This document shows, one piece after another, positions 33,051 to 48,262 of a DNA stretch of 64,000 bases. Source of the stretch: Gemmatimonadota bacterium (lineage in GTDB: Bacteria > Gemmatimonadota > Gemmatimonadetes > Longimicrobiales > Gaopeijiaceae); the NCBI GenBank assembly GCA_022822325.1, contig JAJEBW010000014.1, positions 1-64,000 on the forward strand. Reading direction: 5' to 3'. The notes beneath the pieces were generated by a model. It saw only the letters and a list, made by a program, of their open reading frames with translations. It made no database searches and had not been told where the DNA came from. Made by a program: the position numbers and the translations under genes. Position 1 is the first letter of the stretch. Every line of letters begins with the position of its first letter.

Positions 33051-33123
33051 TGGTCGCTGCTGGACTCGAACCAGCGACCCCTACGATGTGAGCGTAGTGC
33101 TCTACCGACTGAGCTAAGCGACC
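33051..33123 (-). tRNA. tRNA-Val (anticodon CAC)
   Basis: Cloverleaf read on the minus strand. The acceptor GGTCGCT pairs with AGCGACC, the D-arm is GCTCAGTCGGTAGAGC, and the anticodon stem-loop is CTACG CTCACAT CGTAG with anticodon CAC. The T-arm CTGG TTCGAGT CCAG is perfect. The discriminator is A, and CCA is not encoded. 73 nt. Confidence 0.95.
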
Positions 33124-33173
33124 TTTTCGGGCAGCGCCGCGCGGCCGGTGCGAGGGCCGGTCAGGCTGCCCAG

Positions 33174-33246
33174 TACCCCCACGGGGAATCGAACCCCGGT
33201 CTCCTGGCTGAGAACCAGGTATCCTAGTCCACTAGACGATGGGGGC
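33174..33246 (-). tRNA. tRNA-Glu (anticodon CTC)
   Basis: Minus-strand cloverleaf: acceptor GCCCCCA opposite TGGGGGT (G-U at the first pair), anticodon stem-loop CCTGG TTCTCAG CCAGG with anticodon CTC, T-arm CGGGG TTCGATT CCCCG. Discriminator A, no encoded CCA. Located 50 bp upstream (in its own orientation) of tRNA-Val, so the two are probably co-transcribed. Confidence 0.95.
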
Positions 33247-33315: not shown

Positions 33316-34995
33316 GTGGACGATTCAAGTGGGGGAGCGAACCGTGAATGGAAGCCGGTCGTGACCGGGGGGCGGACCGTGAGCGCGAATCCCGAGGTTC
33401 TGATCCTGGGGGGTGGACCGGCGGGCGCCGCTGCGGCAAGGCTGCTGGCCAAGTGGGGCCACGAGGTGGTGGTCGTGGAGCGGGCGGCCGGGGGAGGCGG
33501 GAGGCAGTCCGCAGGGGGTGGCCGCAACGCCGAAGGGAAGCCGGGTTCGCCGGGGGAGCTGCGCGAAGGGGCGGCGGCCGGACAGTCGCTGGCGGAATCG
33601 TTGCCTCCGAGTACGCGCAAGGTGCTGGCCGCGACGGGATTGCTGGGGGTGGTGGAGGCGGGGGACTTCCTGCCGAACCGGGGGAACACCGCGCTCTGGG
33701 ATGGGGAGGGTCGCCGCGACGACTTCGCGCGGGGTGCAACCGGATTTCATGTGGAACGCTCCCGTTTCGATGCGCTGCTGCGGGGGGCGGCTGTGGGGGC
33801 GGGGGCGGGGGTGGTGCGGGGGATTGCCCGGTTGCCGCAACGGCCCCTGGACGACGACGGATGGCGCGTGGAGGTGGTGCGGGGGGAGGGGGATGTGCGG
33901 ACGATGAGGGCGCGCTGGGTGCTGGACTGCACCGGGAGGACGGGGGTGATCGCGCGTCGTTGCCGTCTGCTCGAGTCCGCCGCGCCGACGCTGGCGCTGG
34001 TGCGCCGCTACCGGTCCGAATCGGGCTGGGACAACGTCGAGTCCGCCCACGCCCTGGTGGAGAGCTTTTCCGGTGGATGGGCCTGGTCGGTTCCCACCTC
34101 GGAGCGCAAACGACACATCGCGCTCATGCTGGATCCATCGTTGACGACCCTCGGAGGCGACGGATCCGGTTCGGCCACGGACCTTGCGCGCGCCTTCGCC
34201 GCCGGGATCGCCGAGACCTCCCTCATGCGGTCGGTCGCCGAGGCGGCCGGTCCCCTCTCCGATCCCTGGGCCCTGACCGCTTCGATGTACAGCTCGTCGC
34301 GCTACGCGCTGGATGGCGCCCTCCTGGTCGGCGACGCGGCCTCCTTCATCGACCCGATGTCGTCCTTTGGGGTGAAGAAGGCGCTGGCTTCCGCCTGGCT
34401 GGCCGCCATCACCGTGCACACCGCGCTTCGCGACCCGGAGCGGATCACGCTCGCCACCGACTTCTACAATGAGCGCGAGGACCGGATCTACCGTTCGCTC
34501 AGGGGCGAGCTGGCGACTCAGGTCGAGGACAGCGCACACGCCACCGCCGACTTCTGGGAACGCCGCCGCCGCTGGCTCGCCGACGCCCCCGACACGGCAT
34601 CCGAGGCCAACGCGCCCGAAGGCCCCGACGCGGCCGCCCTGCGCGACGACCCCGAGGTGCGGTCCGCCTTCCACGCGCTGCGCCTCGGTTCGGGACGGTT
34701 GCGCCCGGCCACGCGCCGCACGGTGGAGATCCCCGCCGTGATCGGCAACCGCATCCGTCCGGTTCCGGCGCTGGCCACGCCCCGCTTCCCGCGCGGAGTG
34801 CGCTTCTTCCGCGACGTCGATCTCCTGCGCGTCGTGCATCTGGCCGCCGGAGCCCCCAATCCGGGCGCCCTCTACGAGAGCTACTCCGAGTGGGCGGCGC
34901 GCGAGGACCTGCCGCCGGTCGATCTCGCGAACTTCATCGGCGTGGCGGCGCTCCTGATCGCCGACGGGGTGCTGAAGCCGGGGGCAGACGGATGA
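33316..34995 (+). CDS. qhpG: FAD-dependent monooxygenase QhpG (CTQ biogenesis), halogenase-fold
   Basis: 559-residue flavoprotein. Dinucleotide motif VLILGGGPAGAAAARLLAKW (about residues 28-47), a LAESLPPSTRKVLAATGLLG segment, DCTGRTG, and the second FAD motif LLVGDAASFIDPMSSFGVKK (about 335-354). These place it with group-B monooxygenases and tryptophan-halogenase relatives such as LodB and QhpG. WAWSVP (about 255-260) resembles the halogenase WxWxIP signature. In Paracoccus, QhpG hydroxylates the gamma-subunit tryptophan that becomes CTQ. Assignment as QhpG rests mainly on its place next to the other qhp genes. The GTG start is uncertain; a GTG at 33379 is also plausible. Confidence 0.78.
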   Translation: MDDSSGGANREWKPVVTGGRTVSANPEVLILGGGPAGAAAARLLAKWGHEVVVVERAAGGGGRQSAGGGRNAEGKPGSPGELREGAAAGQSLAESLPPSTRKVLAATGLLGVVEAGDFLPNRGNTALWDGEGRRDDFARGATGFHVERSRFDALLRGAAVGAGAGVVRGIARLPQRPLDDDGWRVEVVRGEGDVRTMRARWVLDCTGRTGVIARRCRLLESAAPTLALVRRYRSESGWDNVESAHALVESFSGGWAWSVPTSERKRHIALMLDPSLTTLGGDGSGSATDLARAFAAGIAETSLMRSVAEAAGPLSDPWALTASMYSSSRYALDGALLVGDAASFIDPMSSFGVKKALASAWLAAITVHTALRDPERITLATDFYNEREDRIYRSLRGELATQVEDSAHATADFWERRRRWLADAPDTASEANAPEGPDAAALRDDPEVRSAFHALRLGSGRLRPATRRTVEIPAVIGNRIRPVPALATPRFPRGVRFFRDVDLLRVVHLAAGAPNPGALYESYSEWAAREDLPPVDLANFIGVAALLIADGVLKPGADG

Positions 34996-35062
34996 CTGGC
35001 TTCTCGTCTCGGTTTGCGGCGCTCGTCTCGGTTTGGAACTCACCGAAGAGGAGGAACGGTCC

Positions 35063-35617
35063 ATGAAGCGGTTCGCTCTTGTGATCCTGTCGGGGACTGC
35101 GCTGATCGGTTGCAATGATCGCGGCACCGTCGGGTCAATCGCGGAAGTAGAGGATGCCGACGTACGTGTCGTCCGGGAGATCATGAATCTGGCGACGACG
35201 GCGTACGCTGGCGACGGATTGATTCGCCCTGCGAGAGTGGTGCTCGGATCGTGGGAAACGCTTGCCGCCGGAGGGAGTGAGGAATGGAGACAGCGGCTTG
35301 TGGGGGCCATTCGGGAGATCGCTGAGGCAGAAGCGAAGTCTCCATCAGAGGCTCCCTGGCTCCTGGCTTTCGAGAAGTCGGAGCGCCCCGATTTCCTGGG
35401 TTGGCTACCGGGGTCATGGGACGGCAGTGTCGATCTCTGGTTGTATGACAAGGAAGATATGAGTGACTGCGGAAGAGGGTTTTCGATACTCATTGCGGTA
35501 CACGGCCGCGACTGGGAGACCGAGTTGAATGGCGAGGCAATGATGAACTGTCTTGACCCGGCCCGCGCGATCGAGGATGTCGAGGCCGGCGAGGCGCCAT
35601 TTCGCAGGATTCAGTGA
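35063..35617 (+). CDS. Hypothetical lipoprotein between qhpG and qhpA
   Basis: 184-residue protein with a type II signal peptide (MKRFALVILSGTALIGCNDRG; lipobox LIGC, Cys17). GAGGAGGA directly precedes ATG 35063. The mature domain is acidic with scattered aromatic residues (EAPWLLAFEKSERPDFLGWL) and two further cysteines. No family recognised. It lies 67 bp after qhpG and 254 bp before qhpA on the same strand, so it may belong to the amine dehydrogenase unit, but no qhp counterpart is known to me. Confidence 0.7.
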   Translation: MKRFALVILSGTALIGCNDRGTVGSIAEVEDADVRVVREIMNLATTAYAGDGLIRPARVVLGSWETLAAGGSEEWRQRLVGAIREIAEAEAKSPSEAPWLLAFEKSERPDFLGWLPGSWDGSVDLWLYDKEDMSDCGRGFSILIAVHGRDWETELNGEAMMNCLDPARAIEDVEAGEAPFRRIQ

Positions 35618-35871
35618 GTGGCCGCTGTCAGGTCGTGGCCCACCGGAATCCGTCCGCGGTCCCGCGCCACACCCTCTTCCTCCACGGCACCCTCTGTTTG
35701 ACCTGCGGCCGTCCACGCACTATATCGGAGCGTTGGCTGAACGCACGTCAATCCCCGTCCCGGGTTCCTGCCCTAATCTCACCGATCCCACCCTCGGCCG
35801 TCATCCAGTCCTCCGCTTCCCATTCACCCATTCCCGTCCCCCAATCCCCCAACCACAGGATCCACACCCGC

Positions 35872-37578
35872 ATGAACCGTCCGATCCCCCGTCTCGCCGG
35901 AGCCCTTCTGCCCCTCCTTGCGGCCGTCACCGCGGCAGGCGCCCAGGAAGCCGAAGACTCCGCAGGGATCCCGGTTGCCAACGAGCTGGTCGTCGAGAGT
36001 TGCAATCGCTGCCACACCGTGGACGACGACGGGATGATGACGCGGGTCTCCTACATGCGGAAGACGCCCGAGGGATGGCAACAGTCGATTCGGCGGATGG
36101 TGACGCTGAACGAGGTTGAGCTGGATCCCGCCGCCGCCCGCGAGATCGTCCGCTACCTGTCGGACAACCATGGAATCGCGCCGGAAGAGCTTCGGCCCGC
36201 CCGCTTCGAGGTCGAGCGCCGGCTGGTGGAGTGGTCGTACGAAAGCGACGAGGAGGTGGAACGGACCTGCAGCAGTTGTCACTCGATGGGAAGGGTCGTC
36301 ACGCAGCGGCGCACGCGCGAGGAGTGGGATCTGCTGATGGCGATGCACCGGGGCTACTACCCGCTCTCAGATACGCAGGGATTTCGCCGGCTCGGCCCGC
36401 CGCCGCCCGACGCGACCGACGCCCGTCATCCGATGGACAAGGCCGTGGCGCACCTTTCGGGGGAATTTCCCCTTGAGACCGCCGAATGGTCCTCCTGGTC
36501 GGCCACGATGCGTTCTCCGCGGCTGGCCGGAAGCTGGGCGCTGAGGGGTCACGAACCGGGAATGGGCCCGATCTACGGCACCGTCGAGATCGAGGCGGGA
36601 GAAGACGAGGCGAGCTTCACGACGTTGGCCCGTTACCGCTACGCCCGCACCGGACGCGAGGTGGAGCGCCAGGGCCGCGCGATCGTCTACACCGGGTACC
36701 AGTGGCGGGGCCGTTCTTCCGAGCGGGACGCCGAAGAGAGCGAGCTGCGCGAGGTGATGATGGTCGAGCGCGGCTGGAACGAGATCAATGGCCGCTGGTT
36801 TGCGGGCGCCTACGACGAGTTCGGCCCCGATGTGACGCTGGAACGCGCCGACGGTCCGGTCTTCCTGGGACTGCATCCGGGGGCGGTCCGCGCGGGCGAT
36901 GCGGCGACGGTCACCCTGCATGGCGTCAACCTTCCCACGGGACTCGCGGCGGACGATCTGGATTTCGGCCCCGGCGTGGAGGTCGTGCAGGTGACGGGCA
37001 GCGACCCGGATGCGGTAACGGTCGAGCTTCGCACCGACGAGGATGCGGCCCCGGGAGCGCGCGATGTTTTCGCGGCGGGTCGGCAGCTTCCCGGTTCTCT
37101 GACCCTCTACGAGAGCGTGGACCGGATCGCGGTCACTCCGCGCGCGGGGATGGCGCGGCTGGGCGGCGGAAACTTCCCCAAGGGCCATGCGCAGTTCGAG
37201 GCGACGGCCTTCTCCAACGGCCCCGACGGCAAGCCCGAGACCGACGACGATCTCGATCTGGGGCTGGTCGAAGTGGAGTGGTCGATGGAGGAATACGCGG
37301 CGGTCTTCGACGACGACGACATCCTTTTCGTGGGGAACCTGGACCCGAACGGCCGCTTCGAGCCTGCGCTGGACGGACCCAATCCGGACCGGACCGGAAT
37401 GCGCAACAATGTCGGCGATGTGTGGGTGGTGGCGACCTGGCGCGGCGACGATGGTGCCGAGGTCCGGGGGCGCGCGCAGTTGATCGTGACGGTCCCGCTC
37501 TACATGAGGTGGGAACCGTGGAGGGTGCAGATCGCGCCGCCGACGAGGAGCACCTCGGGGATGGGGAACGGACGGTGA
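35872..37578 (+). CDS. qhpA: Quinohemoprotein amine dehydrogenase alpha subunit (diheme cytochrome c)
   Basis: 568-residue periplasmic subunit. Signal peptide LAGALLPLLAAVTAAGAQ. Two c-type heme motifs: CNRCH (Cys44, Cys47, His48) and CSSCH (Cys133, Cys136, His137). Three beta-rich domains follow, including an IPT-like sandwich (VTLHGVNLPTGLAADDLDF), ending near GDVWVVATWRGDDGAEVRGR. Two hemes followed by beta domains is the known architecture of the QHNDH alpha subunit, which receives electrons from CTQ and passes them to a soluble acceptor. ATG 35872 was chosen for the signal peptide; upstream frame is Pro/Ser-rich non-coding. It converges with the ankyrin gene. Confidence 0.9.
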   Translation: MNRPIPRLAGALLPLLAAVTAAGAQEAEDSAGIPVANELVVESCNRCHTVDDDGMMTRVSYMRKTPEGWQQSIRRMVTLNEVELDPAAAREIVRYLSDNHGIAPEELRPARFEVERRLVEWSYESDEEVERTCSSCHSMGRVVTQRRTREEWDLLMAMHRGYYPLSDTQGFRRLGPPPPDATDARHPMDKAVAHLSGEFPLETAEWSSWSATMRSPRLAGSWALRGHEPGMGPIYGTVEIEAGEDEASFTTLARYRYARTGREVERQGRAIVYTGYQWRGRSSERDAEESELREVMMVERGWNEINGRWFAGAYDEFGPDVTLERADGPVFLGLHPGAVRAGDAATVTLHGVNLPTGLAADDLDFGPGVEVVQVTGSDPDAVTVELRTDEDAAPGARDVFAAGRQLPGSLTLYESVDRIAVTPRAGMARLGGGNFPKGHAQFEATAFSNGPDGKPETDDDLDLGLVEVEWSMEEYAAVFDDDDILFVGNLDPNGRFEPALDGPNPDRTGMRNNVGDVWVVATWRGDDGAEVRGRAQLIVTVPLYMRWEPWRVQIAPPTRSTSGMGNGR

Positions 37579-37677
37579 ACGAGTCCCGTTGACGCTGGGG
37601 CGGGAGGTCGCGTAGAGGCCGAGTGTGCGTCGGCCATGGATGAAGCCTTGCCGCGGAGGACTTCGCCGCGGAGAACT

Positions 37678-40600
37678 TCATCGGCGAGGGCGCATGGCCT
37701 CCCGCAGTTGCCGGATCTCGGGCAGTCCCTCCAGCTCCCGCTTCTCCAGCGCGATGTCGAAGGGTGTGTCGCCATTCGCATCGCGGACGTTGGGGTTGGC
37801 GCCCAGTCGCAGGAGCAGGGGGAAGGCGGCGGGATTCCACAGGGCTGCCAGGTGCAAGGCCGTCTGGCCGGAAGCATCGATCCGTTCCATCTCCGCTCCG
37901 GCGCGCACCAGCGCCTCCACAACCGGGAGATTGATCCTGGTGGGCGTCGGCATGCCGCCAATGCGTGTGCCGCCGCGATAGAGAGCCATCTGCAAAGGCG
38001 TACGGTGATTCGCGTTGCGTCCGGCGGGCAGGTATCCGTCGGGATCCCGCTGGTTGACATCGGCGCCGACGGCGATCAGGGCGGCCGCGACCTCGGGATG
38101 GGGATTGTAGAAGGCGGCGCTGTGCAGAGGGGCGTAGCCGCGCGCGTCGAGCGCATTCACATCCGCTCCGGCGGCGACCAACAGCTCGATTACGGTTGCG
38201 TTGGAAGCGTTGGCAGCGGCCTCGTGCAGCGGCGTGCGGCCCAACTGCGAACGTGCGCCGACATCGGCTCCGGCTTCCAGCAGGACCGCGGCGACGGCGG
38301 CGCTTGCATTCGATCCCGCGTAGTGCAACGGGGTATTGCCGTGGTGGTAGCTTTCCGATCCACGCGCGTCGATGTCGGCCCCCGCCTCCAGCAGGACCCG
38401 CGCGACCTCGGGGTCGGGGTTCGATCGGGCGGCAAGGTGCAACGGGGTCCATCCCCAACCCCAGTCGACGGAAAAACCGGTGACCCACGCGTTCGGATCC
38501 GCGCCGGCTTCCAGAAGCGCCCGTGCCGCCCTTGCAGTTCCGCTCTCCGCGGCATGGTGCAGCGCGGTGTAGGAGAGCCGTCGAGAGCGCGCCTGCATGT
38601 CGGCGCCGGCCTGGAGCAGAATGTGGATGACTGCGGGATCGGGGGCGTGGGCGGCAGCCTGAAGGAGTGGCTGGGGACGAGAAAAGCGGTCGTCGGCCCC
38701 CTGGACATTCGCGCCGGCCGCAATGCAGTCCGTGACGAGTTCGGCGCTCGCGAACGCGAAGAAGCTCGCGCTGCCCCAACGCTCGCACGAAGCAGGATCC
38801 GCGGTGTTGCCCTCGTCGTCCCGGATCGCCGGATCGGCCCCGAGCCGCAACAGCGCCTGCACGACCTGGGGAATGTCGGAGCGCAGCGCGAGGTGAAGCG
38901 GAGTCTGACCCGCGTTGTTGCGCGCATCGAGGTCGGCGCCCGCCTCGGCCAGAAGGGACACGGCGGCTGCCGTGCGCTGGCCGGCAACATGCAATGGCGT
39001 CGCGCCCAGGGAATCGCGCGCGTTGGGATCGGCGCCCGCGTCCAGAAGTGCGCGGGTTACGGCCAACTGGACAAAGGCGGGGATCTGGCCGCCGGACATG
39101 CGCAGATTCCGGTGCAGGGGAGTTCCGCCCTCGTCGTCGCGTGCATTCACATCCGCGCCCGCAGCCACGAACTCGCGAATGACGGCGGCGGGATCCGCAC
39201 AGCAGCCAAGCGCCGAAACCATCCCGGCCAGCGGCGTCGCGCCTTCCTCATGACGTCTGTCCACCCGGACGCCGTTCTCGAGACAGCCTCGAACGCTTTC
39301 GACGGGCGACAGCGCGAGAAAGCTCCATCCTCGGAGCCGATCGCCGCCGCCGTCCCAGTAGCATGGCGGATCGGCGATTCTCCCGGAGTTGTCGCGCGCA
39401 TCCGGATCGGCCCCGCGTTCGAGAAGCGCGCGCACGGCGGGAAGGCTGTTCCGGGCCCGGGCAATGTGCAGAGGCGTCTCGCCGTTGTTGTTCCGGGCGG
39501 CCAGGTCGGCTCCGGCCCGCACCAGCTCCGCCACCAGCGTCGAATCGGGTAACCAAACCGCGAGGTGCAGCGGCGTATCGCCATCCGCGGTTCGCACGTT
39601 GGGGTCGGCTCCCGCTTCAAGCAACAGGAGGGCGCGCAGGGCCATGGGCGAAGGGGCGCCGGGGGCCGCATCGAGGAATGCCCACCGATTGCTTCGCGAC
39701 TCCATGACGGCCAGGTGGAGCGGCGTCGGCGCCGGTGCGTTGGGGACATCCGGGTCCACCCCGGCGTCCAACAGGAGCCGAACGACTTCGGGATGTCCGG
39801 ACGCGGCCGCGGCATGCAGCGCGGAGGCGTCGCCGCTGACCGATCCGGGCAAGGCGGGATCCCCGCTCGAATCGCGCACCCCCTGTGGATCGGCCCCGGC
39901 ATTCAGCAACGCCTCAATCACCTCCGGTCCCTCGACCGACGCCGCCAGAAGCAACGGAGTTCGCCCCTGGCCGTCGGGCCGGTTGGGGTCCGCGCCCAGC
40001 GCCAGCAGTCGAATGGGCAGATCGGCGAGGGCCTCCCGACGGCGTTGGGGGTCCAGGCTGGCCAGCAATGGAGTCGCGCCGGTGGAATCCGCGGCGTTGA
40101 TGTCGGCGCCGGCCTCCAGGAGGGCAGTGATCGGAGGCTCGCTCATTCCAAAGCGCAAACGGCGGCGTCCGGCGATGGTGTAGCTTCGGTTCCCGATGGC
40201 GTGCAGGAGGGGAGTGCCGATCGTCCCGGCTCCGGCGTTCAAGTCGGCCCCGGAAGCCAGCAACGCGGTCACGATTGCCGTCCACTTGGAGTTGGCGGTC
40301 AGGTGAAGGGGCGTGTTTCCGTCGCGGTTGCGAGCGGAGGGATCGGCTCCCGCCTCCAGCAGGAAGGTCACCGCCGCCAGGCTGTCGGCGCGAACGGCCA
40401 GGTGAAGCGGCGTGTTGCCTTCGTCGTCGCGGGCATGCAGATCCTCGCCCAGGGCCAGGCAGCGCTCGAAGTCGGCGGGCAGCGCCAGCCGCGAGAATCC
40501 CCATGTGTTCCAATTCGCGCAACTGAGCGGATCGGCGACCTTTCCCTCCCGGTCCCGAGCCAGAGGGTCGGCGCCGAAGAGCAACAGCTCCTCGACGATC

Positions 40601-41115
40601 GCGCGATCATTCGCCCAGGCCAGGTGAAGCGGCGTCAGCTCATCCTCGTCGCGCGCGTTCACCTCGGCTCCCGCAGCCACCAGCGCTTCGACGATTCCAG
40701 GAGTCGGATTGGATTCGGCGGCTGCGTGCAGCGGGGTGTAGCCGGGTCGGCCGTCGCGTCGCAGCCTTTCGCGCAGACGGGTGTTCGGATCCGCCCCGGC
40801 GTCCGCAAGCAGGACGATGACCTCCGGATCGGTCGTCGTGCGCGCCGCCGGGTAGAGGGCCGGGGCATGGCCGACCGGCGCCCGCGGATCGACGCCCCCC
40901 TCGAGACATTCCTCCACGAGCGCCGCCGACGCCAGGGCGAAGAAGTTCCAACTGCCCCAATCGTCGCATGAAGGCTCGGCCGGCGTGGAAGAATCGCTCG
41001 CTGCCGGGATCGGACCAACATCGGAAATCCCCTCCGCGGTCTTTCCCGGATCCCTGGCGCAGGCCGCCGCCAGAAGGAACGCGAGGAGAACGCGCGCCTT
41101 GCCGAAAGATCTCAT
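37678..41115 (-). CDS. Giant exported ankyrin-repeat lipoprotein with cysteine-paired cap modules
   Basis: 1145-residue protein with a lipoprotein signal (MRSFGKARVLLAFLLAAACA; Cys19) and GGAGGAAG before ATG 41115. Most of it is about 25 ankyrin repeats (GADPNARDxxGxTPLHLA type). Four non-ankyrin cap segments of form CxxW...FFAxAxxxxVxxCLxxG begin at Cys50, Cys199, Cys585 and Cys777, each with a second Cys at 70, 219, 611 and 797. Spacing is exactly 20 in three of four. Apart from the lipid Cys and a CC at 638-639, these are all the cysteines seen, suggesting disulfides outside the cytoplasm. It lies between qhpA (convergent) and qhpD (divergent). Likely a binding scaffold; partner unknown. 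Confidence 0.9.
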   Translation of the reverse strand: MRSFGKARVLLAFLLAAACARDPGKTAEGISDVGPIPAASDSSTPAEPSCDDWGSWNFFALASAALVEECLEGGVDPRAPVGHAPALYPAARTTTDPEVIVLLADAGADPNTRLRERLRRDGRPGYTPLHAAAESNPTPGIVEALVAAGAEVNARDEDELTPLHLAWANDRAIVEELLLFGADPLARDREGKVADPLSCANWNTWGFSRLALPADFERCLALGEDLHARDDEGNTPLHLAVRADSLAAVTFLLEAGADPSARNRDGNTPLHLTANSKWTAIVTALLASGADLNAGAGTIGTPLLHAIGNRSYTIAGRRRLRFGMSEPPITALLEAGADINAADSTGATPLLASLDPQRRREALADLPIRLLALGADPNRPDGQGRTPLLLAASVEGPEVIEALLNAGADPQGVRDSSGDPALPGSVSGDASALHAAAASGHPEVVRLLLDAGVDPDVPNAPAPTPLHLAVMESRSNRWAFLDAAPGAPSPMALRALLLLEAGADPNVRTADGDTPLHLAVWLPDSTLVAELVRAGADLAARNNNGETPLHIARARNSLPAVRALLERGADPDARDNSGRIADPPCYWDGGGDRLRGWSFLALSPVESVRGCLENGVRVDRRHEEGATPLAGMVSALGCCADPAAVIREFVAAGADVNARDDEGGTPLHRNLRMSGGQIPAFVQLAVTRALLDAGADPNARDSLGATPLHVAGQRTAAAVSLLAEAGADLDARNNAGQTPLHLALRSDIPQVVQALLRLGADPAIRDDEGNTADPASCERWGSASFFAFASAELVTDCIAAGANVQGADDRFSRPQPLLQAAAHAPDPAVIHILLQAGADMQARSRRLSYTALHHAAESGTARAARALLEAGADPNAWVTGFSVDWGWGWTPLHLAARSNPDPEVARVLLEAGADIDARGSESYHHGNTPLHYAGSNASAAVAAVLLEAGADVGARSQLGRTPLHEAAANASNATVIELLVAAGADVNALDARGYAPLHSAAFYNPHPEVAAALIAVGADVNQRDPDGYLPAGRNANHRTPLQMALYRGGTRIGGMPTPTRINLPVVEALVRAGAEMERIDASGQTALHLAALWNPAAFPLLLRLGANPNVRDANGDTPFDIALEKRELEGLPEIRQLREAMRPRR

Positions 41116-41381
41116 TTGCGTCTTCCTCCGTACGCCCAACCGTCTCCAACGGACGCCAGATCGATGGACGGGCCGCGCTCGCAGCCGCGGACTTGTATCT
41201 GCGAAGCTGCAAAGTGCCCGCAAATGCCCGTGAACCGGCAAAGTGCCCGTGAAACAGCCTTCCGCGCACCCGTCGCATACCCGCGCAGCGCCTCCAGGGT
41301 CCGCCGCAACCGCCGTGCGCGAAATCGTCGGACGGGGCGCTCGCACTGGCCCGCATCCCTTCCTCCACCTACTGTAAGGGG
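41116..41381. promoter_or_regulatory. Divergent intergenic region upstream of qhpD and the ankyrin gene
   Basis: 266 bp containing the start regions of both the minus-strand ankyrin gene and the plus-strand qhpD operon. It must hold the qhpD promoter if the operon begins there. A short imperfect repeat AAAGTGCCCGCAAATGCCCG and AAAGTGCCCGTGAAACAGCC occurs at 41210-41260. No sigma-70-like boxes are convincing. Possible target of the AraC-type regulator at 51.7-52.6 kb; speculative. Confidence 0.35.
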
Positions 41382-42881
41382 ATGAACACTTCGAATATGA
41401 CCACGAACATGACCACGGACGCCGCCCTCGGTCCAACGGCGGATGCCCCTCGCGAGCCCGCCTTCCTCGCCCAGCGCGAGTTCCATCCCTTCGAGGCCGG
41501 CGGCGAGACCTTCCTCTACCTGGTGCCCTCGGCGGCGGTCTTCCACCTCGACGAGGCCTCGCTGGCGGTGCTGAAGGCTCTCGACAACGGAGCCGCGAGC
41601 GACGAGGAGCTGATCGCCTCGCTGTCCCCGCGCTTTGGCGAATCCACCGTTCGCCGCAGCCTGTCCGAGCTGATGCAGGTCCAGGCGATCGGGCTGACCA
41701 CCGCGCCGGAACCGAGCTTCCCGCGGGTGCTGCCCCAGGCCGATTTCCCGCTCACCACGATGGTCCTGAATGTCACCAACAAGTGCAACTTGGCCTGCAC
41801 CTACTGCTACGAGTACGGCGAGGACAAGATCGTCGACACGACCTGCGATCCCGCGCCCAACTACATGAGCGAGGAGACCGCGCGCAAGAGCGTCGATTTC
41901 ATGTTCGAGCAATCGGGCGATCTGCCGGTGGCGCACCTCACCTTCTTCGGCGGCGAAACGCTGCTCAACTTCAAGGTGCTGAAGAAGACGGCGGCCTATG
42001 CGCGCGAACGGGCGAAGGAGCTGGGGAAGGATGTCGATTTCTCGCTGACGACCAACGGCACCCTGTTGCGCGACGAGGTGATCGACTGGCTGGCCGAAAA
42101 CCGCGTCGGGGTGACGATCAGCATCGACGGGCCGAAGGAGATGCAGGACAGGTTCCGCGTCTTCAAGAATGGAATGGGCAGCTACGACTACGCGATGCCG
42201 AAGATCAGGCGGCTGCTGAAGCGACACCGCACCCGTCCGATCGGCGCCCGCGTGACGCTCACCCGCCAGACGCTGAACGTGAAGCGGATCTTCCACCACC
42301 TGCGCAACGAGATCGGCTTCTGGGAGGTCGGCTTCGCGCCGGTCACCACCGCCAACGGACGCGGCTACGCGATCCAGGACACCGGTTACGACCGCATGCT
42401 GGACCAGTTCGGGGAGTTGGCGCAGGAGTTCCTTGAGTTCGCGGTCGAGGATCGCCACCACGGCTTCTCGAATGTGAAGGACACGATCGAGGAGATCCAC
42501 AAGGGGGTGTCGAAGGCCTTTCCGTGCGGGGCGGGGCTGGGGCTGATGGGGGTGGCCACCGACGGCGAGGTCGCGCTCTGCCATCGCTTTGCGGGTTCGG
42601 ACGACCACAGCGTCGGATCGGTGCACACCGGGCTGGACCGCAAGCGCCAGTTCGAGTTCCTGGGCCACCATCACATCGCGAACAAGACCGATTGCTCGAC
42701 CTGTTGGGCGCGGCCGCTCTGCGCGGGGGGTTGCTATCACGAGGCGCATGTGCGGTACGGGGACACGGGCGTGGCCAACCTGCACTACTGCGACTGGATT
42801 CGGAGCTGGACGAATACCTGCCTGGAGGTGTACGGCGAGATCGCGGTGAAGAATCCGGGGTATCTGGAGCAGTTTGGGTGA
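41382..42881 (+). CDS. qhpD: Radical SAM/SPASM peptide maturase QhpD
   Basis: 499-residue radical SAM enzyme. The SAM cluster motif is CNLACTYC (Cys135, Cys139, Cys142), preceded by a winged-helix, PqqD-like domain (about residues 30-110). The C-terminal SPASM-type region is Cys-rich: FPCGAGLGLMGVATDGEVAL, TDCSTCWARPLCAGGCYHEA, NLHYCDWIRSWTNTC. In Paracoccus, QhpD forms the three Cys-to-Asp/Glu thioether cross-links in the gamma subunit before export. The first 25 residues are variable, and ATG 41382 has weak upstream signals. It heads an operon with an ankyrin gene 14 bp downstream, then qhpC, qhpB, qhpF and qhpE. Confidence 0.92.
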   Translation: MNTSNMTTNMTTDAALGPTADAPREPAFLAQREFHPFEAGGETFLYLVPSAAVFHLDEASLAVLKALDNGAASDEELIASLSPRFGESTVRRSLSELMQVQAIGLTTAPEPSFPRVLPQADFPLTTMVLNVTNKCNLACTYCYEYGEDKIVDTTCDPAPNYMSEETARKSVDFMFEQSGDLPVAHLTFFGGETLLNFKVLKKTAAYARERAKELGKDVDFSLTTNGTLLRDEVIDWLAENRVGVTISIDGPKEMQDRFRVFKNGMGSYDYAMPKIRRLLKRHRTRPIGARVTLTRQTLNVKRIFHHLRNEIGFWEVGFAPVTTANGRGYAIQDTGYDRMLDQFGELAQEFLEFAVEDRHHGFSNVKDTIEEIHKGVSKAFPCGAGLGLMGVATDGEVALCHRFAGSDDHSVGSVHTGLDRKRQFEFLGHHHIANKTDCSTCWARPLCAGGCYHEAHVRYGDTGVANLHYCDWIRSWTNTCLEVYGEIAVKNPGYLEQFG

Positions 42882-42895
42882 GGGGGGGATGGGGA

Positions 42896-43840
42896 ATGGC
42901 GCGTGCTCCGAGGAGATGGGTGCGGTGGGCGAGGTGGGGTTGGGGAATCGGTGTGGTGGCGATGCTGGTGTGGCCGGGGGTGGGGCAGGATTGGGATTGT
43001 GGAGATTGGAGAATATGGGGCGGAAGGGTGCCGGAGAGAGTGCGCGCGTGCCTGGAGGCGGGAGCCGATGTGATGACGCGCGATCACCTGGGCGACACGC
43101 CGTTGCACACTGCAATCAAATGGAGCCCCAATGACGCGGTCGTGAAGATGTTGCTGGAAGCGGGTGCCGACGCGAATGCTACGGGTGCGTTTGGAAAGAC
43201 ACCGCTCCACTGGGCATCATCACATCCATCGGAAAGGGACTATCCAAGCATTGTTGCGGCGTTGCTGGAAGCCGGAGCCAATATCATGGCGCGGGATCAG
43301 GATGGGGACACGCCACTCCACGTTGCGGCGAGCGCGCGCAATCTGGCGTCAATGCGGGTATTGCTGGCGTTTGGCGCAGATGTGATGGCACGGAACCTGG
43401 AAGGTCTCACGCCGCTCCACGACGCGACGTATTTCTTTGAAGTGGTTCATGTGCGTTGGTATATGGAATCCATCAACGAGTTGCTGAATGCCGGAGCCGA
43501 TGTCATGGCCCGGGATGAAAATGGCAACACGCCACTCCATTATGCGGTGAGTACGAGCTTCGAAAACGGAGCAGACGTGAGAATGTTGCTCAGGGCTGGC
43601 GGAGACGTGGATTTACGGGGGCACCGGGGAGATACGCCACTGCACATAGCGGCCCAAATGGGTCAATCAACCGCCATCATGATCCTCCTCGACCACGGTG
43701 CCGACCCCACCGCCCGCAACCACGCCGGCCAAACCCCATGGGACCTCGCTCGCGAACGCGGCGAATCCTATCCCGACTTCAAGACTTCCAATGCCTACTG
43801 GCGACTCTACGAACTGAACTTTCCCGGGCAGGCAAACTGA
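42896..43840 (+). CDS. Exported ankyrin-repeat protein inside the qhp operon
   Basis: 314-residue protein with an Arg-rich start and a hydrophobic segment (WGIGVVAMLVWPGVGQ), probably a signal peptide. The mature part begins with the same cap seen in the giant ankyrin protein (WDCGDWRIWGGRVPERVRAC; Cys35 and Cys52). About seven ankyrin repeats follow (GADVMARDENGNTPLHYAV), and it ends with a helical tail. It starts 14 bp after the qhpD stop and ends 36 bp before qhpC, so it is almost certainly co-transcribed with them. A chaperone or assembly role for the amine dehydrogenase subunits is possible but unsupported beyond position. Confidence 0.88.
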   Translation: MARAPRRWVRWARWGWGIGVVAMLVWPGVGQDWDCGDWRIWGGRVPERVRACLEAGADVMTRDHLGDTPLHTAIKWSPNDAVVKMLLEAGADANATGAFGKTPLHWASSHPSERDYPSIVAALLEAGANIMARDQDGDTPLHVAASARNLASMRVLLAFGADVMARNLEGLTPLHDATYFFEVVHVRWYMESINELLNAGADVMARDENGNTPLHYAVSTSFENGADVRMLLRAGGDVDLRGHRGDTPLHIAAQMGQSTAIMILLDHGADPTARNHAGQTPWDLARERGESYPDFKTSNAYWRLYELNFPGQAN

Positions 43841-43876
43841 TCGACGGCCTGAAAACGGCCAAACAGGAGCCCCTCC

Positions 43877-44287
43877 ATGAACCACCTGAAAGCAATCAAC
43901 CGCAAGGCCCACCGGATCCGGGCCCAAAACGGGGGACTGAATGGTGCCGCGGCCACCGGCGCGTCCCCCACCGCCATCGAGGCCGCCGCCGCTTCCCCCG
44001 CCCCCGACCCCCCACCCGACGATCTCGACGTCGTTGCGCTCGACAGCCGCTCCGGGCCCCACATCCCCCTGGGGTGCTCGCTGATCTTCGCGCCCGGCTG
44101 GGAGGTGGATTCGACCGGGGGCACCGCGGGGCTCTGCCAGCCGGTGGAGCGCGACCTCTTCGACTGCCACCTGGCCTGCTTCTGGCCCGCGCATGTCCCC
44201 GATCAGCTCAACCACGCGCCCGACTGGACCGGGAAGTGCGCTTCGGCCCAGAAGGACTGGCGCAAGATCGACCTGATTTTCCCCTGA
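43877..44287 (+). CDS. qhpC: Quinohemoprotein amine dehydrogenase gamma subunit (CTQ precursor)
   Basis: 136-residue precursor of the CTQ-bearing subunit. Counting the mature chain from residue 61, every modified residue of the Paracoccus subunit is present at the same number: Cys7-Glu16, Cys27-Asp33 and Cys41-Asp49 (thioethers), and Cys37-Trp43 (CTQ). In the precursor these are Cys67/Glu76, Cys87/Asp93, Cys101/Asp109 and Cys97/Trp103. Key text: GCSLIFAPGWEVD, LCQPVERDLFDCHLACFWPA. An extra Cys121 is present. The leader (about 60 residues) starts MNHLKAINRKAHRIRAQNGG and then has an Ala/Pro-rich insert, making it about twice the 28 residues I recall for Paracoccus. AGGAG precedes ATG 43877. 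Confidence 0.96.
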   Translation: MNHLKAINRKAHRIRAQNGGLNGAAATGASPTAIEAAAASPAPDPPPDDLDVVALDSRSGPHIPLGCSLIFAPGWEVDSTGGTAGLCQPVERDLFDCHLACFWPAHVPDQLNHAPDWTGKCASAQKDWRKIDLIFP

Positions 44288-44367
44288 GGCGCGAGCCCGT
44301 CCCCCGAGCCAGCCGACCAGTCCCCCGAACAGAGTGCCGGCTTCCCCCTGATCCAGCCGTCCCGGGG

Positions 44368-44450
44368 CTGATTCACCCATCTCCAACGAACCGGTTTCGG
44401 GCCGCAGCCAGCGTCCCGCCGCGACTGATTCACCGTCCCCAACGAACCGG
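44368..44450 (+). repeat. Imperfect 26-27 bp direct repeat between qhpC and qhpB
   Basis: Two copies, 44368-44394 and 44425-44450, share CTGATTCACC, then CCAACGAACCGG with one gap and one or two substitutions. They lie in the 186-bp gap between the gamma and beta subunit genes, the longest gap inside the operon. Could be regulatory, an RNA-processing or stoichiometry element, or a chance duplication. Confidence 0.45.
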
Positions 44451-44473
44451 CCGTCCCCCGCAGGCGGCGTTCC

Positions 44474-45697
44474 GTGAGCGAACCGAACGTGACCAAACCG
44501 ACCCCGACCGCCAGCGCCGCCGACCCTTGCCGCACCGGCAATGCCGCCTACACCGCCAAGCCTTCCCCCAACCCGTCCCCCCGCCCCCCCTTCGCCCGCA
44601 TCCCGGCAACGATCGCCGCCGCAACGATCCTCCTCGCATTCTTTCCCCAGCCCGGAACCGCCCAGCCCCGGAGCGGCGGCAACGGCCTCATCTACATGGC
44701 GGCCTACGATCAGTCGATCAAGGTGATTGACGAGAGCACCCTGGAGATCGTGGACGAGATTCCGACCTCCATCGGGATCCCAATCGGCCTGACGCTCTCC
44801 GACAATCACGAACGCATCTATGTGCGCGACGCCGAGTTCGAGGAGATCGAGATCATCGATGTCGCGACCCGCCGGCCGATCGACAGCTTCACCCTCAGTC
44901 GGGGCCGCTCGCGGGTGCGGATCTGGGGGATGGAGATCGACCCGGACGAGGACTTCATCATCCTCAACACCATGCGCTACACGAAGCGAATGGATCGCTG
45001 GGAGATCGACGAGGCGGTCCTGCTCCGCTACGACCTGGGCGCGAACGAAGTCACCGACACGATCCCCTGGCCCGATGGGGAAGGCGGACGCCGCGCGCGC
45101 ATGATGTTTTCGCCCGATGGGGAGCTGCTCTACTTCTTCGGCCGCGACATCCTGATCCTTGAGACCGAGGACTTCACCGTCGCCGACCGCTGGGAGCTCT
45201 CGCGCCCCCTGGAGGAGGGACTGGGTCGCTTCAGCTTCGGCTTTCCCACCAGTCCGCACGACGAACGCGGCTATCACACCGGCCTCTTCAACACCACCGA
45301 TCCCCTGCAAAACCGCCGCATGATGGGGATTGCGCGGGTGAATCTGGCCGAGAAATCCTTTGACTTCTTCACCCTGGGACCGAGCGAGCCGGTCAGCTTC
45401 CGCCTCGCGCCCGGCGGCACGAAGGCGTACGGACTGGTTCAGCGGATCGGCAACTACGAGTTCTGGACCTTCGATGTGGAGGGCAGGCGGGTGCTCAGCC
45501 GCGAGCGCTTCGCCGGTCGGCCCCGCATGGGTCTGGAGGTGAGTTCGAATGGCGAGCTGCTCTACATCTACAACGCCGGCTCGACGATCGACGTCTACGA
45601 CGCCGAGAGCTACGAGTACCTGCGGACGGTCACATTCGACGCCGACATGACCAGCTTCGTGATGATTCCGGAGGGAACCGGCCCCCGGAGAAACTGA
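44474..45697 (+). CDS. qhpB: Quinohemoprotein amine dehydrogenase beta subunit (beta-propeller)
   Basis: 407-residue seven-bladed propeller subunit that packs against the gamma subunit. A long Pro/Ala-rich N-terminus leads into a signal-like hydrophobic segment (IPATIAAATILLAFFPQPGT, about residues 43-62). The mature part has YVTN-type blades: YMAAYDQSIKVIDESTLEIV, IYVRDAEFEEIEIIDVATRR, MFSPDGELLYFFGRDILILE and SSNGELLYIYNAGSTIDVYD. The GTG at 44474 may not be the true start; an ATG at 44696 would remove the signal and is rejected. It is 19 bp from qhpF. Confidence 0.9.
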   Translation: MSEPNVTKPTPTASAADPCRTGNAAYTAKPSPNPSPRPPFARIPATIAAATILLAFFPQPGTAQPRSGGNGLIYMAAYDQSIKVIDESTLEIVDEIPTSIGIPIGLTLSDNHERIYVRDAEFEEIEIIDVATRRPIDSFTLSRGRSRVRIWGMEIDPDEDFIILNTMRYTKRMDRWEIDEAVLLRYDLGANEVTDTIPWPDGEGGRRARMMFSPDGELLYFFGRDILILETEDFTVADRWELSRPLEEGLGRFSFGFPTSPHDERGYHTGLFNTTDPLQNRRMMGIARVNLAEKSFDFFTLGPSEPVSFRLAPGGTKAYGLVQRIGNYEFWTFDVEGRRVLSRERFAGRPRMGLEVSSNGELLYIYNAGSTIDVYDAESYEYLRTVTFDADMTSFVMIPEGTGPRRN

Positions 45698-45715
45698 CGC
45701 GCCGCACCCCTTCCG

Positions 45716-47383
45716 ATGGCCATCCTGGATGCGGAAATTCGGCGCGGGTTCGGCTACGTCCGGCCCTTTCGCGGCCGCCTCGCCGTCATTCTGGCGCTCA
45801 ACCTGGCGGGGACCGCACTCGCGCTCTATGTCCCCTTCCTCACCCGCGGCCTCGTCGACGACGCCCTTCTGGGACAGGACCGGGCGGCGCTGACGCGGAT
45901 CGTGGCGCTCTTCACGGGCGTCACCGTGGCCAGCTTCGTCCTCAACTTCGTGAGTGGGATCCGCTACACCGAGCTCTCCGCCGAGATCCTCTTCCAGATG
46001 CGGCTCGCCCTCTACAGCCACCTGCAACGGCTTTCGCCCCGCTTCCACGCCCGCACCCCGCTCGGCGAGATCATGTCGCGGCTCAACAACGACGTGAGCG
46101 AGATTCAGCGCGTCCTGGCCGACGTGGCGCTGGCCTGGATCGGGAACGCCGCCTTTCTGGTCGGCGCGGTGGCGATGCTCCTCTGGCTCGACTGGCGTCT
46201 CTTCCTGGCCGCCGCCGCCCTTCTTCCCCCCGCGATCTGGGCGCTGGTTCGCTATCGCCGCCGTCTGGAGGGAGAGGTGCGCGTCATGCGGGAACGGAGC
46301 GCGGGGATCGGCGCATTCCTGATCGAGACGCTGCGCGGCGTCAGGCTGGTCGTCGCGTCGAACGCCGCACAGCGCGAGGCGGGGCGCTTTCGGGTTCGCA
46401 ACGACGCCTTCGTGCGATCGCTCATGCGGATGCAGCGGCTGCGCTATCTCTCGGGGGGCATTCCCGGGCTGCTCCTCTCGGCGAGCACGGCGGTGATCTT
46501 CCTCTACGGCGGCGCCCGCGTGATCGACGGTGCCCTCACCCTCGGCGCCTTCACCGCCTTCATGGCCTACCAGATGCGGCTGATCGGTCCGGTCCAGGGG
46601 CTGATGGGACTCTACACCGGCCTGGGGGTGGCGCGCGTCTCGCTGCGACGGTTTCACGAATTCCTGGACGAGCCGGTCGAGGTGGTCGAAACGGCGAATC
46701 CGGCGCGGCTGCTCCCGGCGCGGGGCGAGATCGTCTTTGAGGATGTGTGGTGCGGGCACGGGCGCGGCGGTGAGGTCCTCCGGGGACTTCGGCTCGCGGT
46801 GGCCCCCGGCGAGGTGGTGGCGCTGACCGGGCCCTCGGGAAGCGGAAAATCGACGGTCGCCGATCTCCTGGTGCGGCACCTGGATCCCGATCGGGGACGG
46901 ATTCTCCTCGACGGAATCGATCTTCGCGCGATGGCGCTGGCCGATTTGCGCGCGCGCGTGGCCGTGGTCGATCAGTCGGCCTTCCTCTTCAACGCCTCGA
47001 TCGCCGAAAATGTGCGTTACGCTCGTCCCGGCGCGGACCCGGCCAGGGTAATGCGGGCGCTGACACGGGCGGGGCTCGAAGAGTTCGTGGCGGCGCTGCC
47101 GGAGGGAATCGACACGGTGGTGGGCGAGGATGGCCGGGCGCTTTCGGCGGGCGAGCGGCAGCGGCTGGCGATTGCGCGCGCGCTCCTGGCCGACCCGGCG
47201 GTGCTGGTGCTCGACGAGGCGACCAGTGCGCTCGATGCCGACCGGGAGGCCGAGGTGGTGCGGGCCTACAGCGAGGCGATGGCCGGGCGGACGACGGTTT
47301 TGATCACGCACCGGGAGGAGCTGCTGCGCTCGGCGGACCGGGTCGTGCGGGTGGATGCGGGATGGGCGTCGGCGGGACGATGA
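45716..47383 (+). CDS. qhpF: ABC transporter QhpF (fused permease-ATPase)
   Basis: 555-residue half-transporter of the MsbA/exporter type. Six hydrophobic helices lie within residues about 20-300. The NBD has Walker A GPSGSGKST (372-380), signature LSAGERQ (476-482), Walker B VLVLDEA (about 496-502) and H-loop ITHREE. The first position of the usual SGGQ is altered to SAGE. In Paracoccus, QhpF is needed to move the processed gamma subunit to the periplasm. Its stop overlaps a short ATG frame that is not the protease frame. Confidence 0.88.
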   Translation: MAILDAEIRRGFGYVRPFRGRLAVILALNLAGTALALYVPFLTRGLVDDALLGQDRAALTRIVALFTGVTVASFVLNFVSGIRYTELSAEILFQMRLALYSHLQRLSPRFHARTPLGEIMSRLNNDVSEIQRVLADVALAWIGNAAFLVGAVAMLLWLDWRLFLAAAALLPPAIWALVRYRRRLEGEVRVMRERSAGIGAFLIETLRGVRLVVASNAAQREAGRFRVRNDAFVRSLMRMQRLRYLSGGIPGLLLSASTAVIFLYGGARVIDGALTLGAFTAFMAYQMRLIGPVQGLMGLYTGLGVARVSLRRFHEFLDEPVEVVETANPARLLPARGEIVFEDVWCGHGRGGEVLRGLRLAVAPGEVVALTGPSGSGKSTVADLLVRHLDPDRGRILLDGIDLRAMALADLRARVAVVDQSAFLFNASIAENVRYARPGADPARVMRALTRAGLEEFVAALPEGIDTVVGEDGRALSAGERQRLAIARALLADPAVLVLDEATSALDADREAEVVRAYSEAMAGRTTVLITHREELLRSADRVVRVDAGWASAGR

Positions 47384-47416
47384 GCGGCGAAGGGGGCGTA
47401 GGGTGGACGGCGCCTG

Positions 47417-48262
47417 GTGGGACGACGCCGTCGGCGGTTCCGGACGACGGTTCGCGCGGTCTTTGGGCCCGGGAAGACCGGGCCGGAGGGCACGGTGGCG
47501 GGTAGCGCTCGCCGGGGAAGGCTCTGCGTGGATGCGGCCGGGATGCGGGACCGGACCGGGCGGGGCGTTTCGGTGGCGGTGATCGACAGCGGGGTGAATC
47601 CGGCGCATCCGCATGTGGAGGGGGTGGTGGGCGGGGTGCGAATGACGCTGGCCGGGGATCCGGCCGATGACCATGTGGACCGGCTGGGGCATGGGACCGC
47701 CGTCTTCGCGGCCATTCAGGAGAAGGCGCCCGGGGCGCGGATTCATGCCGTGCGGGTCTTCGACGACCGGTTACGGACGACGGTGCGTGCGCTGGTCGCC
47801 GCGATCGATTGGGCGGCGGAGCGACGGATACGGATTGTGAACCTGAGTCTGGGGACGATGCGCGAGGAGCACGCCGGGGAGTTGGCCGAGGCGGTGGCCC
47901 GGTTGGCGGCGGCGGGGGGGGTGGTGGTGGCCGCGGCCGAAGACGACGGGCGCAGATGGTGGCCGGGATCGCTGGAGGCCGCCGTGGGGGTCGTGGCCGA
48001 CGGGAGCTGTCCACGGGGCTGCGCCGAGGTGCGGGCGGGGCGGCGGGGCGGGTGGGTCGTGGCCGCGGCGCCCTGGCCCAGACCGATTCCGGGCGTTCCC
48101 GTGGAGCGGAATCTGAATGGAATCAGCTTTGCGGTGGCGAATGCGAGCGGGATTCTGGCCCGGGCGCTGGAGGGGTGCGGGGGGGTGGGGGTGGAGGATT
48201 GCAGGGAGGCGTTGCAAGCCTTTTCGACATGCCGGAAGCCGTTGCCCCGCAGAGGCTCGTAG
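47417..48262 (+). CDS. qhpE: Subtilisin-like serine protease QhpE
   Basis: 281-residue S8-type protease. Catalytic triad Asp57 in VAVIDSGVNPAHPHV, His92 in LGHGTAVFAAI and Ser237 in NGISFAVANASG. The oxyanion-region Asn may be in VAAAEDDGRRWW or VNLSLGT. In Paracoccus, QhpE removes the gamma-subunit leader in the cytoplasm; no signal peptide is visible here, in agreement. The start is uncertain: the first 40 residues from GTG 47417 are Arg/Gly-rich and a GTG near 47495 would fit better. Last gene of the qhp operon; it faces the SARP-type regulator with 82 bp between 3' ends. Confidence 0.86.
   Translation: MGRRRRRFRTTVRAVFGPGKTGPEGTVAGSARRGRLCVDAAGMRDRTGRGVSVAVIDSGVNPAHPHVEGVVGGVRMTLAGDPADDHVDRLGHGTAVFAAIQEKAPGARIHAVRVFDDRLRTTVRALVAAIDWAAERRIRIVNLSLGTMREEHAGELAEAVARLAAAGGVVVAAAEDDGRRWWPGSLEAAVGVVADGSCPRGCAEVRAGRRGGWVVAAAPWPRPIPGVPVERNLNGISFAVANASGILARALEGCGGVGVEDCREALQAFSTCRKPLPRRGS

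What the first reader, a model, noticed from the sequence alone, without database searches (positions are those of the whole stretch)
33316..48262. Complete quinohemoprotein amine dehydrogenase (QHNDH/CTQ) cluster with inserted ankyrin genes
Sequence shows qhpG, qhpA, qhpD, qhpC, qhpB, qhpF and qhpE homologues. The order A-D-C-B-F-E is what I recall for Paracoccus, but it is split by a 3.4-kb opposite-strand ankyrin gene, carries an ankyrin gene inside the operon and has qhpG at the front. Every known structural and maturation step is covered, so a CTQ enzyme is probably made by this organism. The novelty lies in the rearrangement and the added proteins.
Basis: partly seen in the sequence, partly recalled or inferred. 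Interest (0 to 1): 0.8.

Follow-up and report, generated by a model that had tools for sequence, protein, structure and literature searches.

The report
Amine-oxidising operon interrupted by ankyrin genes
This bacterium carries a complete, ordinary set of genes for a quinone-containing amine-oxidising enzyme, and in its genus an exported ankyrin-repeat gene sits inside the operon, has multiplied in some relatives, and has outlived the operon in others.

Summary
All seven qhp genes (G, A, D, C, B, F, E) are present and open, with a 3.4-kb opposite-strand ankyrin gene between A and D and a small same-strand one between D and C. The gamma subunit keeps every CTQ and thioether residue. The very divergent beta subunit is confirmed by predicted fold: the top two PDB hits are QHNDH beta chains. 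qhpG in front is no rearrangement: 46 of 63 loci outside the genus have G before A-D. The ankyrin insertion is real and was seen only in this genus. Ten of 23 genomes (one only a remnant) carry it at the A|D junction, with 1 to at least 7 genes of one locus-specific subfamily; ten have qhp without it, two kept the array but lost qhp, one has neither. It replaces an ancestral 4-bp A-D overlap, and qhpD gains a promoter-like element. Best reading: a working QHNDH operon cut by independently selected, exported ankyrin genes of a probably sponge-associated Gemmatimonadota lineage, not part of CTQ biogenesis. The divergent region shared by ankyrin and qhpD leaves co-regulation open.

The parts
33316..34995 (+). 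qhpG, flavin monooxygenase (peptidyl-Trp dihydroxylase); start 33316 or, better by relatives, GTG 33361
   Evidence: NF049967 QhpG 212.9 bits, best model, cutoff 240; PDB hits include 7ctq peptidyl tryptophan dihydroxylase, rank 3 behind 8zop and 3i3l, both halogenase-type
35066..35617 (+). lipoprotein-like ORF between qhpG and qhpA, no Pfam or NCBIfam family; no relative of it was labelled in the qhp loci of relatives
35872..37578 (+). qhpA, alpha subunit, signal peptide, two CxxCH haem sites, domains I-IV
   Evidence: TIGR03908 478 bits; PF09098/14930/09099/09100; 1jmx_A E 4e-76
37678..41115 (-). AnkL, exported (lipoprotein-like N-terminus) ankyrin protein, 1145 aa, inserted between qhpA and qhpD
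   Evidence: Pfam PF00023/PF12796; locus-specific subfamily; AF2 model of residues 1-438 is an ankyrin solenoid
41116..41381 (.). divergent control region between AnkL and qhpD (266 bp)
41346..41375 (+). promoter-like element CTGGC-N17-CCTACTGT, 6 bp before the qhpD ATG
   Evidence: only match in the window; 11 hits in 1.9 Mb of loci, all upstream of qhpD in Ank+ genomes
41382..42881 (+). qhpD, radical SAM/SPASM thioether-forming maturase
   Evidence: TIGR03906 560 bits, cutoff 453
42896..43840 (+). AnkS, probably exported ankyrin protein, 314 aa from this ATG, 14 bp after qhpD, 36 bp before qhpC
   Evidence: sequence; PF00023 4e-45; not of the AnkL subfamily
43877..44287 (+). qhpC, gamma subunit with an N-terminal extension of about 64 aa; CTQ pair C97/W103 and crosslink residues C67-E76, C87-D93, C101-D109 present
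   Evidence: PF08992 1e-32, NF037958; ungapped alignment to 1jju_C; pairings recalled
44474..45697 (+). qhpB, beta subunit, beta-propeller, divergent
   Evidence: TIGR03907 44 bits, cutoff 223; Foldseek rank 1-2 are 1jju_B, 1jmx_B
45716..47383 (+). qhpF, ABC exporter
   Evidence: PF00664, PF00005; no QhpF-specific model matched; conserved position between B and E
47417..48262 (+). qhpE, subtilisin-like leader protease (start may be 47543)
   Evidence: NF049966 162.9 bits, cutoff 165; PF00082

Best explanation
A complete and probably functional QHNDH (CTQ amine dehydrogenase) operon, in the order common in Gemmatimonadota, into which an exported ankyrin-repeat gene was inserted on the opposite strand between qhpA and qhpD within the history of this genus. 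The insertion removed the ancestral 4-bp stop/start overlap that couples qhpD to qhpA. The downstream half D-C-B-F-E is now probably transcribed from its own promoter in the Ank-qhpD divergent region. The ankyrin gene duplicated in tandem in some lineages (up to at least 7 called copies), was carried along or exchanged with the locus, and is kept by selection of its own, most likely for contact with a sponge or coral host. It is not needed for CTQ biogenesis. Shown: gene content, junctions, one Ank subfamily, dissociation of Ank and qhp in both directions, purifying selection on Ank. Inferred: enzyme activity, promoter function, host-contact role, sponge host.
For: Qhp families and residues. 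Genus survey of 23 genomes: qhp+Ank 10 (G012 only a 181-aa remnant), qhp only 10, Ank only 2 (G003, G014: VapBC-like pair - Ank array - downstream flank genes), neither 1. 31 of 32 A|D Ank proteins have their best other-genome hit inside the same set, the 32nd in G003's orphan array. 4-bp A-D overlap in 29 of 35 Ank-free loci, outgroups included. CTGGC-N17-CCTAC[TC]GT upstream of qhpD in 8 of 9 Ank+ genomes tested and nowhere else in the 1.9 Mb scanned. dN/dS of Ank 0.24-0.41 over 7 pairs, qhp genes 0 to 0.26 over 10 pairs. Between G020 and G011, qhpB, D and F are nearly identical at silent sites (dS 0.004, 0.09, 0.09) while A, G and Ank are not (0.32, 0.20, 0.19-0.27), which fits exchange of parts of the locus. 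Ankyrin proteins are more frequent in sponge-associated than in seawater Gemmatimonadota, 0.25% vs 0.09% of genes (PMC8163846, passages).
Against: On neither tree do the Ank+ genomes form one clade, so a single insertion needs exchange of the locus or losses, and precise loss restoring a 4-bp overlap is awkward. The promoter element was defined after seeing the sequences. Ank and qhpD share a divergent intergenic region in the seven Ank+ genomes measured, which is compatible with co-regulation. Several genomes are fragmented drafts. No expression data; the sponge host is inferred from record titles.
Confidence: 0.7

Rival explanations
1. The ankyrin proteins are accessory to QHNDH: expressed from the divergent region with qhpD under amine control, exported, and acting as scaffold, assembly factor or host-surface display linked to amine use.
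For: Divergent Ank/qhpD gap of 41-342 bp (called starts) in the 7 Ank+ genomes measured; AnkS sits 14 bp after qhpD on the same strand; signal-like N-termini.
Against: 10 of 23 genus genomes have qhp without Ank, and 2 keep Ank without qhp; 0 of 63 loci outside the genus have Ank between A and D; AnkS is not of the AnkL subfamily.
Confidence: 0.12
2. The A|D junction is an insertion hot spot and ankyrin genes entered independently in three lineages.
For: The flank-gene tree puts Ank+ genomes in three places; other junctions (VapBC-like pair at G|A, propellers at B|F, other genes at F|E) also collect cargo.
Against: The A|D ankyrins are one subfamily and all three lineages share the same element just before qhpD.
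Confidence: 0.15
3. The insertion has broken the operon and the enzyme is no longer made in this organism.
For: A-D coupling is lost and the operon is split by an opposite-strand gene.
Against: All Qhp ORFs are open, cofactor residues conserved, dN/dS of qhp genes low also between Ank+ genomes, own promoter-like element before qhpD.
Confidence: 0.08

Closest known systems
Quinohemoprotein amine dehydrogenase operon qhpABCDEFGR of Paracoccus denitrificans / Pseudomonas putida
   Same: Same seven gene products, same CTQ and thioether residues, beta-propeller beta subunit, dihaem alpha subunit
   Different: qhpG first, N-terminal extension of QhpC about 64 aa against a 28-residue leader (PMC7876137, passages), very divergent beta subunit, no qhp-specific regulator recognised nearby, ankyrin genes inside
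qhp operons of other Gemmatimonadota and Acidobacteriota (loci L079-L108, L128-L188)
   Same: Order G-A-D-C-B-F-E; A-D overlap of 4 bp in most of those measured
   Different: No ankyrin gene between A and D
Ankyrin-repeat proteins of sponge symbionts (eukaryote-like repeat proteins)
   Same: Long ankyrin proteins, signal-like N-termini, tandem arrays; the class is enriched in sponge-associated Gemmatimonadota (PMC8163846, passages)
   Different: This subfamily has its home inside the qhp operon

Membership tests
QHNDH (CTQ amine dehydrogenase) | Gamma subunit with CTQ Cys/Trp and three Cys-Asp/Glu crosslink pairs | tested here: met
   PF08992, NF037958 over cutoff; all eight residues aligned with 1jju_C (pairings recalled)
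QHNDH (CTQ amine dehydrogenase) | Dihaem alpha subunit, domains I-IV | tested here: met
   TIGR03908 over cutoff, four Pfam domains; two CxxCH read in the sequence
QHNDH (CTQ amine dehydrogenase) | Propeller-type beta subunit of the QHNDH kind | tested here: met
   Sequence evidence weak (44 bits, cutoff 223; profile search prefers 1l0q over 1jju_B) but the predicted fold ranks 1jju_B and 1jmx_B first of 1956
QHNDH maturation | QhpD radical SAM maturase | tested here: met
   TIGR03906 560 bits, cutoff 453
QHNDH maturation | QhpG monooxygenase and QhpE protease | tested here: inconclusive
   Best models are QhpG and QhpE, both just under the curated cutoff (212.9/240; 162.9/165); in the genus QhpE passes the cutoff in 4 of 20 genomes matched; position conserved
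QHNDH maturation | QhpF exporter | tested here: inconclusive
   Generic ABC exporter; no specific model matched; conserved position between B and E
QHNDH operon | Dedicated regulator qhpR | tested here: inconclusive
   The nearest candidate (AraC-type, 51712-52557) looks unrelated to qhp: found in 70 of 148 relatives, many without qhp, and far from qhp in G047. No regulator elsewhere was sought.
QHNDH (CTQ amine dehydrogenase) | Amine-dependent activity, CTQ formed | not testable with these tools
   Needs protein
Ankyrin-repeat protein | Ankyrin repeats forming a solenoid | tested here: met
   Pfam for AnkL and AnkS; AF2 model of AnkL 1-438 and Foldseek hits to ankyrins and DARPins

The most novel reading that the evidence does not exclude
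Ank array and qhpD-C-B-F-E form one divergently controlled, amine-responsive symbiosis module: host-derived amines would switch on both the periplasmic CTQ dehydrogenase and a set of exported ankyrin proteins that act on the host.
Probability: 0.1. Interest if true: 0.65.

Novelty: new variant of a known kind. Interest (0 to 1): 0.38.

Why it matters
It places CTQ enzymes in a probably host-associated Gemmatimonadota genus in which 20 of 23 genomes carry qhp, and it is a clear case of a conserved, overlapping gene pair cut by a gene family with its own selection. The shared divergent region makes a simple test possible: do amines control the ankyrin genes? It also warns that gene neighbourhood alone is poor evidence for a functional link in these genomes, and that the current QhpB model scores this beta subunit far below its cutoff.

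Tried and rejected
Rejected: 'qhpG at the front' as novelty (46 of 63 loci outside the genus). Rejected: the AraC-type gene 51712-52557 and the AAA-domain gene 48345-51737 as qhp regulators. They flank qhp in the genus and in G044, but the AraC type occurs in 70 of 148 relatives and the AAA type in 49 of 148, many without qhp, and the pair lies about 270 kb from qhp in G047. Rejected: a general Ank-qhp association. 4 of 63 outside loci (L150, L158, L173, L184; two of one genus) have an Ank ORF elsewhere in the locus, close to chance for an assumed rate of 0.034 per locus and 60 loci (P for 3 or more 0.33, for 4 or more 0.15; the rate is my estimate from 5 Ank sites in the 3.48-Mb own genome). 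Weak: TANNNT at spacer 6 before ATG in 3% of 341 promoter-proximal and 1% of 92 coupled genes, suggestive of some leaderless starts only. Papers: the held open-licence library has no paper with quinohemoprotein and ankyrin or with amine dehydrogenase, ankyrin and operon; PMC10469786 and PMC10581226 (passages) do not mention ankyrin. The NCBIfam Dot/Icm Ank effector models hit AnkL and AnkS far below cutoff, as ankyrin repeats generally would.
Full report
WHAT IS THERE. Alpha, gamma and QhpD pass their NCBIfam cutoffs; QhpG and QhpE have their own family as best model but fall just short; beta has its own family as best model but at 44 bits against 223. A profile of 25 beta sequences hits 1jju_B and 1jmx_B in the PDB but ranks an archaeal surface-layer propeller higher. 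The predicted structure (pLDDT 82) resolves this: the two QHNDH beta chains are rank 1 and 2 of 1956 Foldseek hits. The gamma subunit aligns without gaps to 1jju_C over 72 residues, with all Cys, Glu, Asp and Trp of the crosslinks and of CTQ in place (the pairings are from memory).

THE INSERTS. AnkL (37678-41115, minus strand, 1145 aa) lies tail to tail with qhpA and head to head with qhpD. AnkS (42896-43840, plus, 314 aa) lies between qhpD and qhpC with gaps of 14 and 36 bp. Both start with signal-like N-termini by eye, that of AnkL lipoprotein-like; no signal predictor was run. AnkL carries the cap motif CxxWxxxxFFxxA..V..CLxxG; C50, W53, F58, F59, V67 and C70 are invariant in the 17 aligned N-terminal halves. 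A model of residues 1-438 (pLDDT 84) is an ankyrin solenoid.

IS THE ORDER UNUSUAL? No. In the 80 loci of named genomes that were returned (best 80 of 328 relatives) plus the relatives' loci, G-A-D-C-B-F-E is the common order. Counting only the 63 of those 80 that lie outside the genus: 46 have G before A before D, 61 have A-D-C/B contiguous, none has Ank between A and D. The published operon is already described as variable in arrangement, order and strand (PMC7876137, passages). More distant phyla, such as the Proteobacteria of the type operon, were not surveyed.

THE GENUS. QhpC is found in 49 of 148 relatives and in 19 of 23 genomes of the genus; QhpD in 20 of 23, one of them a fragment in G003; QhpA in 20 of 23, split in G005; QhpE in 20 of 23, 4 of them over the model's cutoff, while 3 of 14 control genomes also match below cutoff. 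I classed all 23 by gene maps. Ten have qhp with Ank at the A|D junction: the window with 1; G005 at least 1; G022 2; G007 and G021 3; G018 4; G008 at least 4 over two contigs; G020 5; G011 at least 7 called genes over two contigs, some of them short; G012 a 181-aa remnant. Ten have qhp without Ank (G001, G002, G004, G006, G009, G013, G015, G016, G017, G019). Two have Ank without qhp: in G003 and G014 the array lies between a VapBC-like pair and the usual downstream flank genes, with the qhp genes gone (G003 keeps a 135-aa qhpD piece on another contig). G010 has neither at this place, though Ank genes near this subfamily lie elsewhere in it (C53). Several of these genomes are fragmented drafts, so copy numbers are lower bounds and the joins in G005, G008 and G011 are inferred from contig ends.

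ONE SUBFAMILY. Of 32 Ank proteins (fragments included) at the A|D junction, 31 have their best match in another genome within the same set and one in G003's orphan array; all four G003 proteins match the set. Of 36 proteins of other long Ank arrays, 32 match each other, 3 match the A|D set and 1 G003's array (bit scores). The other arrays are a chosen part of what one search listed, not all. The window's AnkL aligns with G018's over 1116 codons at 61% identity. In the window's genome the Ank genes found elsewhere (5 proteins on C45, C25, C47, C4) are of another type, each behind a pair of conserved genes. AnkS has only weak relatives in this set (164 bits).

INSERTED, AND WHEN. In 29 of 35 Ank-free loci, outgroups included, the stop of qhpA and the start of qhpD overlap by 4 bases; in the genus 7 of 10, the other three having a start 10 bases after the stop (my count from its table). 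So the uninterrupted state looks ancestral. In the seven Ank+ genomes measured, a divergent gap of 41 to 342 bp (by called starts) separates the first Ank from qhpD. Eight of nine Ank+ genomes tested carry CTGGC-N17-CCTAC[TC]GT there; the ninth, G008, has a called qhpD start too far inside the gene. Over 1.9 Mb of loci (L061-L108, L189-L260 and the window, partly overlapping), both strands, the element occurs 11 times, always there; in the window it is the only match even with one mismatch (expected 0.15). I read it as the promoter of qhpD and as a mark of common origin; the pattern was made after seeing these sequences. The qhp gene tree (FastTree) joins the nine other Ank+ genomes (support 0.82) and puts the window beside the Ank-free ones (0.89). 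A tree of four flank genes, without G007 and G012, puts Ank+ genomes in three places. A single insertion therefore needs exchange of the locus between lineages or some losses. Exchange has some support: between G020 and G011 silent divergence is 0.004-0.09 in qhpB, D and F but 0.19-0.32 in qhpA, qhpG and two Ank genes. Repeated insertion is the rival.

SELECTION AND ROLE. Ank dN/dS is 0.24-0.41 in seven pairs, qhp genes 0 to 0.26 in ten pairs: Ank proteins are kept, with looser constraint. The order Longimicrobiales holds host-associated genomes from sponges and coral (PMC10581226, passages). Sponge-associated Gemmatimonadota are enriched in ankyrin proteins, and eukaryote-like repeat proteins of sponge symbionts confer evasion of phagocytosis when expressed in E. 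coli (PMC8163846, passages). I therefore think that the Ank genes serve host contact and sit in qhp by history. Because operon and array occur without each other in 12 of 23 genomes, a role in CTQ biogenesis is unlikely, but shared regulation through the divergent region is untested.

Noticed in passing
L068:4750-8685 (minus), also G018, G007, G020, G012 regions: The B|F junction of several relatives carries arrays of about 430-aa lipoprotein-like proteins; two of three tested in G011 match DUF5128 6-bladed beta-propeller. In G001, G006, G009 and G016 qhpE lies about 9-26 kb from qhpF, with other genes between.
   Followed up: partly
G018, G007, G012 between qhpG and qhpA; G003 and G014 beside the Ank array: A VapBC-like pair (named by appearance, VapC alone called in G012) occupies the G|A junction and stays at the locus where qhp is lost.
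   Followed up: partly
48345-51737 and 51712-52557: A 1130-aa AAA-domain protein and an AraC-type protein form a conserved pair in the family (49 and 70 of 148 relatives); they lie next to or near qhp in this genus and in G044.
   Followed up: yes
L188: An Acidobacteria qhp locus with two consecutive qhpC-qhpB pairs.
   Followed up: no
L134 and L176 (one contig): Two qhpD-containing loci about 15 kb apart on one Acidobacteria contig.
   Followed up: no
L064:717-1973 (minus): In G005 a second ORF begins with the QhpC leader sequence (VDHLKAINQ..) directly before the true qhpC, as if the leader had been duplicated.
   Followed up: no
33051-33246: Two tRNA genes (Val, Glu) end just before qhpG on the opposite strand; whether relatives keep them there was not checked.
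   Followed up: no
41209-41249: Two copies of GCAAAGTGCCCG 17 bp apart in the divergent AnkL-qhpD region, a possible regulator site.
   Followed up: no
G018, G007, G012 upstream of qhpD: A possible leader ORF of about 8-9 codons whose stop overlaps or abuts the qhpD start, as if translational coupling had been re-made (read).
   Followed up: no
own genome C45, C25, C47, C4 (L209-L212): A second kind of Ank protein (about 600-700 aa) lies behind a conserved pair of about 820-870 and 460 aa; similar cassettes in G001, G009, G020, G021.
   Followed up: partly
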